Assembly (NCBI RefSeq): GCF_021502675.1
Contig: NZ_JAKFHA010000003.1
Location: 138,644-202,643, forward strand
DNA from: Yinghuangia soli
GTDB taxonomy: Bacteria; Actinomycetota; Actinomycetes; Streptomycetales; Streptomycetaceae
Direction: 5' to 3'
Length of the DNA: 64,000 nt
Positions within the stretch are counted from its first letter, which is position 1, and each line of letters begins with the position of its first letter. Below the pieces are notes generated by a model, which saw only the letters and a list, made by a program, of their open reading frames with translations, had not been told where the DNA came from and did no database searches. The translations under genes and the position numbers were made by a program. Positions 60,744 to 64,000 of this stretch are shown piece by piece.

Positions 60744-61826
60744 CTAGAAGGGCGGATCATCGGTGTAGCCGCCGTCCGGCCCGGTGCCGCGAGAAGCCTG
60801 CTGAGCGTGGTCAGGGTTCGGCGTCGTCCGGGTCGCCGGTGGCCACCGGTCCTCGGCTACCGCGTGGATCATCGTCTGAAGGCTTCGGCGCAGGCCATCG
60901 CCGTAGACGTCTTCGGCATCGACCATCCACGGCAGCGGGGCCATCAGCAAAGCCATTTCGTCTGTGGCCAGTTCGTCGATGACTGCGTGCAGTTCCTGCG
61001 GGACGGGTGCATCGGACAGGCACAGCCAGCCCAGTGCGGCGCTGATGCGGACCTCGGGCGGACTGCCGGGGTCGGACCAGTGCGCGTGTGTCCATGCCAT
61101 GGCTCCCGCGTCGTGGTGGGCGATGGCCAGCTGTGCGATCGCCAGCACCAGGCCGGCGCGCGTACGCGGGTCGTGCTCGGCACGCAGGCGGGCGTGAAGC
61201 GCAGTGCGGACGTCGTCGGCCTGTTCGGACACGGCCGCGAGCGCGTACGTGGCGGCAGTGCGGATGTCGGGGTCCGGGTCGTCGAGCAGTGGCACGAGCA
61301 GGTCGATGTCCGCGGCGATCGCGTCGCGGGCGGCCCGTACCGACCAACTCCCCAGGTATCCGCTCGGTTCGAAGGCCCACACGTCGCCGCAGTAGCGGAA
61401 GCGCAGCATCTCGGCACGTGTGCAGACACCCTGGTTGTGCCAGCGCGCCACCCCGGCCGCTACCAGCAGGGTGCGGGCCCGGTGATGTGCACCTGGATCC
61501 GCGCCGACCCGCAGCAGGAAGGGGACCGCCGGCGCGACCGCAGCCCGCATGTCGTTCGCGCACCACCCCCACAACTGCATCTGCGCGTTCCGGACGACCG
61601 CGGGGTCGTCCGAGCGCAGCTCGCACACTGCCGTCGGCACACCAGCACCGTCAGGGAAGCGCTCCCAGGGAACGCGCCAGAGAAGGAACCCGTCTTTGAC
61701 CTCACGCGGCATGGCCGCCACCACCGCACGGACATCCAACGGTCCGCCCGCCTGCGCCTGCGGATCCCCTTCGCAGAACGCCTGCACCACTGCTCGGTGT
61801 GCCGGATCGTCCTCCCACCGCTCCAT
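60744..61826 (-). CDS. HEAT-repeat protein
   Basis: This 360-residue protein has paired-helix repeats such as DIDLLVPLLDDPDPDIRTAA, TYALAAVSEQADDVRTALHA and ISAALGWLCLSDAPVPQELH. Pro after the acidic turn (DPDPDIR) is typical of HEAT/PBS-like repeats that make protein contacts. No enzymatic motif. Start MERWEDDPAHRAVV is the natural one. GC is slightly lower than in core genes. Confidence 0.85.
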   Translation of the reverse strand: MERWEDDPAHRAVVQAFCEGDPQAQAGGPLDVRAVVAAMPREVKDGFLLWRVPWERFPDGAGVPTAVCELRSDDPAVVRNAQMQLWGWCANDMRAAVAPAVPFLLRVGADPGAHHRARTLLVAAGVARWHNQGVCTRAEMLRFRYCGDVWAFEPSGYLGSWSVRAARDAIAADIDLLVPLLDDPDPDIRTAATYALAAVSEQADDVRTALHARLRAEHDPRTRAGLVLAIAQLAIAHHDAGAMAWTHAHWSDPGSPPEVRISAALGWLCLSDAPVPQELHAVIDELATDEMALLMAPLPWMVDAEDVYGDGLRRSLQTMIHAVAEDRWPPATRTTPNPDHAQQASRGTGPDGGYTDDPPF

Positions 61827-62143
61827 GCAACCCCCACCCCGAAGTCAAACGCCCGTCGACTGAATGTACGGCCGCGCGCGAGGTTGGACTGCGATGGTGA
61901 TCTTGGCTGCGAGCTGCGGCGCGGGTGAGGGCCCGGGGTGTGCGGCTGGCCATGGGGCAAGTTTGGCGGCCGTAGCGCCGAAATCGTCCTGGGCCGCGTC
62001 GCGGCGGTCACCGTCGAACGCCGCCAAGTCTGGGACTCGGAGAGCCGGCAAAGGGTCGAAAGGGGCTTCCCCAAGTCCGCGTGATCCCCCGCAGGGGCAG
62101 CCGCAGCGGCTGATCCCGGCCTAGGGTTGGGGGTCTAAACAGA
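61827..62143. other. Intergenic region before the low-GC islet
   Basis: A minus-strand frame (about 61845-62040, VPDLAAFDGDRRDAAQDDFG) has some coding bias but no start signal or known motif. Otherwise nothing is seen. Confidence 0.35.
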
Positions 62144-62317
62144 TTAGGGATCGGATCGCCACCAATCCTGCCCCGTTTCGACAAGAAGGCCATTGAAGAG
62201 GAAGGGACGCATTTTCACGTTGTATACGGATCCGGCACTGGCGGTCGGCGTCGAAGCCGTGAAGACAAATAGCGCAACCGCGCAGACCGCCAGGACCTTC
62301 TTCACAAGAGAAGTCAT
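62144..62317 (-). CDS. 57-residue secreted peptide
   Basis: MTSLVKKVLAVCAVALFVFT followed by ASTPTASA is a textbook signal peptide with an AxA cleavage site near residue 28. The mature part of about 29 residues reads GSVYNVKMRPFLFNGLLVET then GQDWWRSDP. AAGGG precedes the ATG by 8 nt, and the ATG overlaps the stop of the small ORF before it (ATGA), implying coupling. GC is visibly lower than the surrounding genome. It may be a bacteriocin-like or signalling peptide, or the start of a truncated exported protein. Confidence 0.6.
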   Translation of the reverse strand: MTSLVKKVLAVCAVALFVFTASTPTASAGSVYNVKMRPFLFNGLLVETGQDWWRSDP

Positions 62318-62490
62318 TGCTCGCCCTTCTGTTTATCCACGTTGATCCAAGCCGCCGAGGCGACCGAGAACGTATCCTTAAGCACGAGAATGACCAAGGG
62401 TCGAGTGTGGAATCCTTGACCGCCTGGCTTGATTTGATCTCTGGGCAGGTTCAAGACCTCGTCGCCGACGTTGCGAATGGGTCGGATCAT
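62314..62490 (-). CDS. Small low-GC ORF coupled to the secreted peptide
   Basis: This predicted 58-residue protein begins MIRPIRNVGDEVLNLPRDQI and ends WINVDKQKGEQ, with TGA overlapping the ATG of the next gene by 3 nt. A longer in-frame start exists at 62604. No motif or homology recognised; the coupling is the main evidence that it is real. Codon use is mixed (AGA, CAA, TTG), unlike neighbours. Confidence 0.4.
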   Translation of the reverse strand: MIRPIRNVGDEVLNLPRDQIKPGGQGFHTRPLVILVLKDTFSVASAAWINVDKQKGEQ

Positions 62491-62677
62491 CTTCGTTTGT
62501 GTTTCATGCCTTCTGCTATGCCGGCTGATCAAGTCTCCTGACACTGCGGGAGATGGAGCAGAGCTCTTCTCACTACACCCGTCAAGCCTTAGGCCCGTAC
62601 GCATTTAGACAACGGCGATGCGGGGAATACAGGAGCTCAGCGTTCGCGTCGGTGAATTCACGCACGCCGGCCGTCAG

Positions 62678-62880
62678 TTAAAGGCGGATGTCGTCCCGGA
62701 CGAGCACAATCGGTCCACCGAGCTGGATGTGGGCACAGGTGATCAAGTCGCGGGAGTCACGCCGGTCAAAGCCCTTCGGCTCCTCCTTGCCGCGCCGGTA
62801 CTCGCGGATCGCGCAGATCAACCTGGACCGATTCCGGGGTTCGAGTCGGATGCGGGCAAGGCCACTACCGTGCAAAGCGA
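62678..62880 (-). pseudogene. 3' fragment of an unidentified gene
   Basis: The frame SGLARIRLEPRNRSRLICAI, then REYRRGKEEPKGFDRRDSRD and LITCAHIQLGGPIVLVRDDI ends at TAA 62678-62680. Third-position bias is coding-like and no in-frame ATG or GTG precedes it. It runs directly into the truncated gene on its right, out of frame, so a deletion joined the two. No family assigned. Confidence 0.5.
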
Positions 62881-62889
62881 GCCACCCGC

Positions 62890-63258
62890 CCTCCCCCTGC
62901 GACGGGTGGTCACGCGGCGGCCGTCGCCGAGCAGCGGCCCGAAGCGCAGGCCGCTCGCGGTGCGCTGATGGACGCTCGTGAACATGCCGCCGTGGTTCTC
63001 GGTGACCCGGCGGAAGACGGTGAGGCGCAGCGTGGCCGAGCACCGCCACACCTCCCATCCGTCGAGCCTGATGCGCACGTCGGGGCCGCGTCCGGCCTCG
63101 GCCGGGTGCGGCACCCAGGCGGGCGCGAGCCAGTGGTTCGGCGGGTGCTCCTCGCCGTGGCCTTCGTCCGGCGGGGTGTAGCGCACCAGGTAATGCGCCT
63201 GGGGCATCGGCGGTTCGGGCTCCGGGTCCGCCGCGACGAGTCCCTCGAAGAAGCTCAT
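62890..63258 (-). pseudogene. 5' part of an uncharacterised actinobacterial gene (truncated)
   Basis: ATG 63258 opens MSFFEGLVAADPEPEPPMPQ, a start seen in larger Streptomyces hypothetical proteins, and continues with IRLDGWEVWRCSATLRLTVF, TSVHQRTASGLRFGPLLGDG and RRVTT. Such proteins usually carry on for another 40-60 residues; here familiar sequence stops near 62905 and the frame runs into unrelated residues until 62818. Function of the intact form unknown. Confidence 0.6.
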
Positions 63259-63395
63259 CGCCTCAGCGTGCCGCACCCCACCGACAACCCGTTGGGCGCA
63301 ACTCCCCTGCAGGCCAAGCCTGATGACCTTGGGCCTGAGCGGTGGCCCGCCCCGAGGACGGCGCTCCGGAGAATTGCCGCTTTGAACTCCGTACA

Positions 63396-63415
63396 TCGTA
63401 CCGTACGCTGTACGA
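63396..63415. promoter_or_regulatory. TetR-like operator TCGTAC-N8-GTACGA
   Basis: A perfect 6-bp inverted repeat (63396-63401 and 63410-63415) encloses a CGTACG palindrome, 34 nt before ATG 63450. The pattern is typical of TetR-family operators, but no TetR gene is in the window. Confidence 0.55.
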
Positions 63416-63449
63416 AGTAAGCCCGAGAACGTGCCCAGGAGGACCATCC

Positions 63450-63875
63450 ATGTACCAGCCGACCACCGAAGAACTGCAGGCCGTCGACGCGTGGTTCGCC
63501 GCGTACGACGCTCTCGCCGAGCGCGGCGCGATCGAGGAGTTGGCCGACCTGGCGGTGTTCCCGATGAACGTGGCCACCGACGTGCCGGGCGGCCACGCCG
63601 TGCTGAAGCAGTGGACCCGCGAGGAGTACGTCGAGGCCATGGGCCAGGCGATGGGCGGCGGGACCGCGGGGCTCGAACTGTCGTCCGTCCGGACGCCGCG
63701 CTTCGTCAGCGCAAACCTGGTCATCGTGGAGACCGAGGCGACCATGACCATCGAGGGGCAGCGGCAGAGCATGCACTACGCCGACCTGCTGGTCCGCACC
63801 GAGGACGGCTGGGCGTTCCAGACGATGGTGCAGGGCGGCTGGGGCTACGGCTGGCCGGCCGCCAAGCGCGGCTGA
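63450..63875 (+). CDS. NTF2/SnoaL-like (DUF4440-type) protein
   Basis: This 141-residue single-domain protein has TTEELQAVDAWFAAYDALAE, FPMNVATDVPGGHAVLKQW, VIVETEATMTIEGQRQSMHY and ADLLVRTEDGWAFQTMVQGG, matching the NTF2-like cone fold. Members are small-ligand binders or isomerases. AGGAGGA precedes the ATG by 7 nt. The palindrome upstream suggests repression by a TetR-type protein encoded elsewhere. Confidence 0.82.
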   Translation: MYQPTTEELQAVDAWFAAYDALAERGAIEELADLAVFPMNVATDVPGGHAVLKQWTREEYVEAMGQAMGGGTAGLELSSVRTPRFVSANLVIVETEATMTIEGQRQSMHYADLLVRTEDGWAFQTMVQGGWGYGWPAAKRG

Positions 63876-63943
63876 CCGCACGACGCGGCTGACATCGCGC
63901 GGCGCGGCCGAGCGCAAGACGTGTCCCGGTGGCGCCGGGGAGA

Positions 63944-63973
63944 CCGAACGGCATCCCGCCGAACGGCATCCCG
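63944..63973 (+). repeat. Two tandem copies of CCGAACGGCATCCCG
   Basis: A perfect 15-bp tandem duplication lies in the gap after the NTF2-like gene; no coding effect is evident. Confidence 0.75.
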
Positions 63974-63983
63974 GCGCCTCCGG

Positions 63984-64000
63984 TCACGCGAGGTAGATGG
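63984..64000 (-). CDS. Possible C-terminal end of a gene continuing beyond the window
   Basis: A minus-strand frame closes with TGA at 63984-63986 and reads IYLA before it. Only five codons are visible, so this is a weak call based on its convergent position after the NTF2-like gene. Confidence 0.2.

What the first reader, a model, noticed from the sequence alone, without database searches (positions are those of the whole stretch)
62144..62490. Coupled micro-operon with a 57-residue secreted peptide in low-GC DNA
The second ORF is too short for most gene callers but has a good RBS, perfect signal peptide, AxA cleavage site and ATGA coupling. The mature peptide of about 29 residues has a WWRSDP end. 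A new secreted signal or antimicrobial with its partner protein is possible.
Basis: partly seen in the sequence, partly recalled or inferred. Interest (0 to 1): 0.6.

Follow-up and report, generated by a model that had tools for sequence, protein, structure and literature searches.

The report
Orphan secreted-peptide gene pair, actinomycete
Two tiny overlapping genes in an actinomycete-type genome look real and the second probably makes a short secreted peptide, but no relative was found in the genomes searched, so it is a credible orphan of unknown role rather than a recognised signal or antibiotic.

Summary
On the minus strand a 58-codon ORF (62490-62314) overlaps by ATGA a 57-codon ORF (62317-62144) that begins with a Sec-type signal peptide and an ASA|G site, in the lowest-GC part of the window (about 55% against 72%). 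Tests favour real coding: bacterial codon-position GC in both ORFs (0 of 20,000 shuffles reach the combined value), absent just upstream of the proposed start; the top signal-peptide score among 940 candidate starts; 0 of 2,000 Markov sequences giving such an ORF. The ribosome site is only modest (AAGG); ORF1's ATG has none. No credible homologue of either protein was found in sampled related genomes, GTDB and viral contigs (pattern-based), plasmids, phages, Pfam, NCBIfam or PHROGs. A broken transposase fragment lies about 140 bases upstream, and a same-genus genome shares only one flanking gene. Best reading: a strain-restricted, probably horizontally acquired two-gene orphan whose second product is exported and cleaved to a neutral, cysteine-free 29-residue peptide. 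A signal or antimicrobial role has no positive evidence. Expression is untested.

The parts
62314..62490 (-). ORF1, 58 aa partner protein, ATG start, no clear Shine-Dalgarno site
   Evidence: codon-position GC 0.60/0.36/0.69; no family for the 96-aa open form
62144..62317 (-). ORF2, 57 aa precursor of the presumed secreted peptide; ATGA overlap with the ORF1 stop
   Evidence: codon-position GC 0.56/0.47/0.67; AAGG 7 nt upstream
62234..62317 (-). predicted Sec signal peptide, residues 1-28, ASA cleavage site
   Evidence: read; heuristic score 3.19, top of 940 candidate starts; no SignalP run
62147..62233 (-). predicted mature peptide, residues 29-57, net charge 0, no Cys
   Evidence: cleavage inferred
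62101..62750 (.). lowest-GC stretch of the window (400-bp windows below 58%)
   Evidence: 100-bp profile
62630..62842 (-). broken transposase fragment, stop inside, both ends missing
   Evidence: 70% identity over 71 of 173 residues to a transposase in NZ_CP109402.1, which matches PF13358 DDE_3; 24 plasmid records match window 62600-63100, and the 20 listed lie at about 62624-62841
60744..61826 (-). downstream protein with weak HEAT-repeat matches, 360 aa, about 320 bases after ORF2; probably a separate unit
   Evidence: HEAT_2 E 2e-5, 25 bits, just under the Pfam cut-off of 27.7; matches in 6 of 41 genomes, the own one included

Best explanation
A real, strain-restricted two-gene unit on a small piece of low-GC, probably foreign DNA near a broken insertion-sequence fragment. 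Ribosomes finishing ORF1 re-start at the overlapping ATG of ORF2 (inferred from ATGA). The ORF2 product is exported by Sec and cut after ASA by signal peptidase I, releasing a neutral 29-residue peptide (inferred). ORF1 is a small cytoplasmic partner or a translational feeder for ORF2 (inferred). My committed guess for the role is an accessory secreted or surface-associated peptide of mobile-element or phage origin; the target is not shown. Shown: the anatomy, the codon-position signal, the GC anomaly and the lack of relatives in what was searched. Inferred: expression, coupling, export, cleavage, foreign origin, role.
For: Codon-position GC in both ORFs and its absence upstream; signal-peptide score and null models; lowest GC in the window; transposase fragment; in a 19-kb stretch of the same-genus genome G001 only window 63366-63880 has a counterpart; no credible paralogue in the own genome.
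Against: No homologue, so selection on the protein cannot be tested. The ORF1 ATG has no ribosome site and no promoter was found. The 94 bases after ORF2 fold no better than shuffles (z -0.03); the only terminator-like site found lies inside ORF2 and is at chance level (1 found, 0.7 expected). Single-sequence models are weak (mean pLDDT 69.5 for ORF2; 60.8 for ORF1). ORF2's own codon signal is modest (p 0.0235). The surroundings hold debris, so the pair may be decaying.
Confidence: 0.55

Rival explanations
1. Debris: ORF1 and ORF2 are leftovers of foreign genes, truncated when the island formed, with coding statistics inherited but no present function. ORF2 would be the cut-off start of a longer secreted protein.
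For: Broken transposase fragment nearby; little shared gene order; no promoter found; ORF1 ATG without ribosome site.
Against: Both ORFs have starts and stops in coupled register; no longer secreted protein credibly resembles the peptide; in the three frames below the ORF2 stop I saw no continuation by eye.
Confidence: 0.25
2. The hydrophobic segment stays in the membrane: a small membrane protein, like a Hok-type toxin or a phage lysis accessory, with a 29-residue outer tail.
For: Short N-terminal hydrophobic helix and short tail resemble such proteins (recalled); the AF2 model has a helix at 3-22.
Against: The stretch TPTASA after the helix favours cleavage (inference); no PHROG, Pfam or credible NCBIfam match; no Rfam family at gathering scores in 61000-64000.
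Confidence: 0.1
3. Chance ORFs in low-GC non-coding DNA.
For: No homologues; weak ribosome sites.
Against: 0 of 20,000 shuffles and 0 of 2,000 Markov sequences.
Confidence: 0.1

Closest known systems
Unannotated Streptomyces smORF-encoded peptides with signal peptides (PMC10654065, passages read)
   Same: Short, of unknown function, signal peptide predicted; [quoted passage not shown]
   Different: Those came from peptide data and 20 non-annotated ones were common to two species; this one has neither kind of support.
RRNPP propeptide/receptor pairs (PMC10075063, start of abstract seen in the listing)
   Same: Two adjacent genes, one for a short exported propeptide.
   Different: The partner is 58 aa with no recognised domain, not an intracellular receptor; described there for Firmicutes and their mobile elements.
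Hok-type small membrane toxins (recalled)
   Same: Similar length and N-terminal hydrophobic helix.
   Different: This one has a signal-peptidase-like site; no family match.

Membership tests
RRNPP quorum-sensing pair | Adjacent gene for a cognate intracellular receptor (TPR type, recalled) | tested here: not met
   ORF1 (96-aa open form) has no Pfam match at E 1; the other four neighbouring frames scanned show no TPR; the downstream protein shows weak HEAT matches and no HTH
RRNPP quorum-sensing pair | Short propeptide with an export signal | tested here: met
   heuristic signal-peptide score; no SignalP
Known protein families (Pfam, NCBIfam, PHROGs) | Profile match for ORF1 or ORF2 | tested here: not met
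   the one NCBIfam row for ORF2 (FocB, E 0.049, 13.2 bits against a cut-off of 499) is noise
Cationic or Cys-rich secreted antimicrobial peptide | Net positive charge or disulphide cysteines in the mature part | tested here: not met
   charge 0, Cys 0 in 29 residues
Lipoprotein | Lipobox cysteine at the end of the signal | tested here: not met
   the only Cys (residue 12) is inside the hydrophobic run (read)
Hok-type membrane toxin | Toxicity on expression and antisense control | not testable with these tools
   no Rfam match at gathering scores in 61000-64000 is the only indirect sign

The most novel reading that the evidence does not exclude
A new two-gene secreted-peptide system on a mobile fragment: ORF2 releases a linear, neutral, Trp-rich-ended 29-mer that acts on neighbouring cells, and ORF1 is its tiny cognate partner (immunity or chaperone), translated in step by ATGA coupling.
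Probability: 0.1. Interest if true: 0.55.

Novelty: new member of a known kind. Interest (0 to 1): 0.22.

Why it matters
If expressed, it is one more secreted orphan peptide of the kind that is easily overlooked in actinomycetes, with a partner gene that gives a handle on function. As it stands it is one locus without relatives, so it makes no wider open question directly testable.

Tried and rejected
Weak genome hits to ORF2; 4 of 394 family genomes matched at E 0.01: the own one and three at E about 0.007. Two of these three (G359, G352) are one and the same frame, with a stop just after the aligned W, no hydrophobic run, and lying antisense to a 204-codon frame that looks like a conserved gene; the third (G161) has two stops inside; 2 of 394, the own one and G508 with a stop inside; a second place in the own genome at E 0.26.

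Weak hits to the joined pair; 1 of 392, 19% identity, a stop inside; 1 of 14 at E 0.05, no stop; it lies in a longer frame that reads by eye like an alpha/beta hydrolase, without a signal peptide at that place; 0 of 4; that tool warned that an empty answer without a positive genome shows nothing.

Partner hits. Phage Scarif, E 0.9, 31 residues at 48%; the next annotated gene there has no signal peptide by eye. Two viral contigs share HTRPLVIL; the frame of one of the two was extended and looks non-coding by eye.

DNA of 61830-62620: 32 of 61 genomes matched, the own one included (the tool scored at most 8 candidates per genome). The 43 rows other than the own are short: 34 lie outside both ORFs, 1 in ORF1, 8 in the signal-peptide part of ORF2. 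Five of these 8 were fetched: four lie in one conserved gene that looks like mreB (recalled), one in another frame; a shared 20-21-base word, so chance.

HEAT link: short ORFs with a signal peptide (score 2.3 or more, 35-110 aa) were sought around 11 other HEAT loci, with about 1.5 kb on each side where available, plus one 8-kb stretch of G020; 1 of these 12 stretches gave a hit (L012, 110 aa, unlike ORF2) (a cruder pattern was dropped). Seven of the 11 loci come from two genomes, one from the own genome, and 3 of the 15 matches had no locus. As background, two of three other stretches scanned (L032 beyond ORF2 itself, L041) also gave one hit each. So the peptide is not a standing partner of the HEAT gene.

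Paper searches gave context only; no claim is made that the locus is absent from print.

Full report
What is there. On the minus strand, ORF1 (62490-62314, 58 aa) and ORF2 (62317-62144, 57 aa) overlap by ATGA. ORF2 starts MTSLVKKVLAVCAVALFVFTASTPTASA|GS: a short basic n-region, a 12-residue hydrophobic run and an ASA site, then 29 residues with net charge 0 and no Cys. The window lies in a 9.7-Mb genome (G000, contig C23), has 71.8% GC, and the pair lies in its only stretch where 400-bp windows fall below 58%.

Is it more than chance. A home-made signal-peptide score put ORF2 first among 940 candidate starts of 35-100 codons, and none of 2,000 Markov sequences with the region's own composition gave an ORF of 40 or more residues scoring 3.0. 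The last two use the same home-made score and are not independent; SignalP was not available. Weak points: ORF2 has only AAGG at 7 nt and the ORF1 ATG nothing; an in-frame TTG at about 62532 has AGGAG only 2 nt away (read); no sigma-70-like promoter; no extra-stable structure after ORF2. I also see by eye a six-codon frame (62507-62487) whose stop overlaps the ORF1 start by ATGA; its meaning is unknown.

Relatives of ORF2. In its own genome only itself at a convincing score; 1 of 3 genus genomes, the own one; 394 family genomes and 394 class genomes, both drawn from larger groups, gave the own match plus chance matches (checked); none by pattern search in GTDB contigs or viral contigs; none in 72,556 plasmid and 50,697 phage records at E 1, with the low-complexity filter on.

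Relatives of ORF1 and of the pair. ORF1: only the own genome among 394; none in GTDB contigs or plasmids; one phage row at E 0.9; two viral rows judged chance. The joined pair: 1 of 392 genomes of the genus of G010 (with a stop), 0 of 4, 1 of 14 at E 0.05, inside an unrelated-looking frame. The genome sets overlap, so the numbers must not be added. No family in Pfam, NCBIfam or PHROGs apart from one noise row. The pattern scans reach close relatives only, and a 57-residue query has little power for distant ones, so the statement is 'no close relative in what was searched'.

Surroundings. About 140 bases above the ORF1 ATG (62842-62630) is a transposase fragment, 70% identical over 71 residues to a transposase of a Streptomyces anulatus plasmid, with a stop inside and both ends missing; that relative matches DDE_3. 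Of 24 plasmid records matching 62600-63100, the 20 listed match this part. About 320 bases below ORF2 is a gene with weak HEAT-repeat matches, with relatives in 6 of 41 genomes including the own, but other loci of that gene have no such peptide beside them. In the same-genus genome G001 only 63366-63880 has a counterpart in the 19-kb stretch compared, so the pair sits in variable DNA and no empty site could be defined.

Mechanism. The most likely course is: transcript from an unrecognised promoter above ORF1; ORF1 translated; re-initiation at ORF2 through ATGA; Sec export; signal-peptidase cleavage; a free neutral 29-mer. All of these are inferences from anatomy. The role is not known; neutral charge and lack of cysteines argue against the commonest antimicrobial types, and no receptor was recognised in the neighbouring frames scanned. 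A decayed remnant is the main rival.

Literature. Passages of PMC10654065 report non-annotated small proteins in Streptomyces (54 in one set) and four novel ones predicted secreted, so the kind is known. PMC10075063 (start of abstract in the listing) describes RRNPP pairs, to which this does not belong by the partner test.

Verdict. Observation confirmed; interpretation partly supported; a plausible orphan of modest interest.

Noticed in passing
window 62630-62842 (-): Broken DDE_3-type transposase fragment with relatives in Streptomyces and other Streptomycetaceae plasmids.
   Followed up: partly
window 62487-62507 (-): A six-codon frame whose stop overlaps the ORF1 start by ATGA, making a possible chain of three overlapping frames.
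   Followed up: no
window 60744-61826 (-); L013: HEAT-like protein with a second copy at 55% identity in the same genome and seven matches in one other genome (G020), two of them neighbours on one contig.
   Followed up: partly
window 63366-63880 (+); L041:13188-13700: Small gene with sub-threshold SnoaL-like matches, 87% DNA identity in a same-genus genome while its surroundings are not shared; 63386-63419 upstream also matches there in reverse, so it looks palindromic, like an operator.
   Followed up: partly
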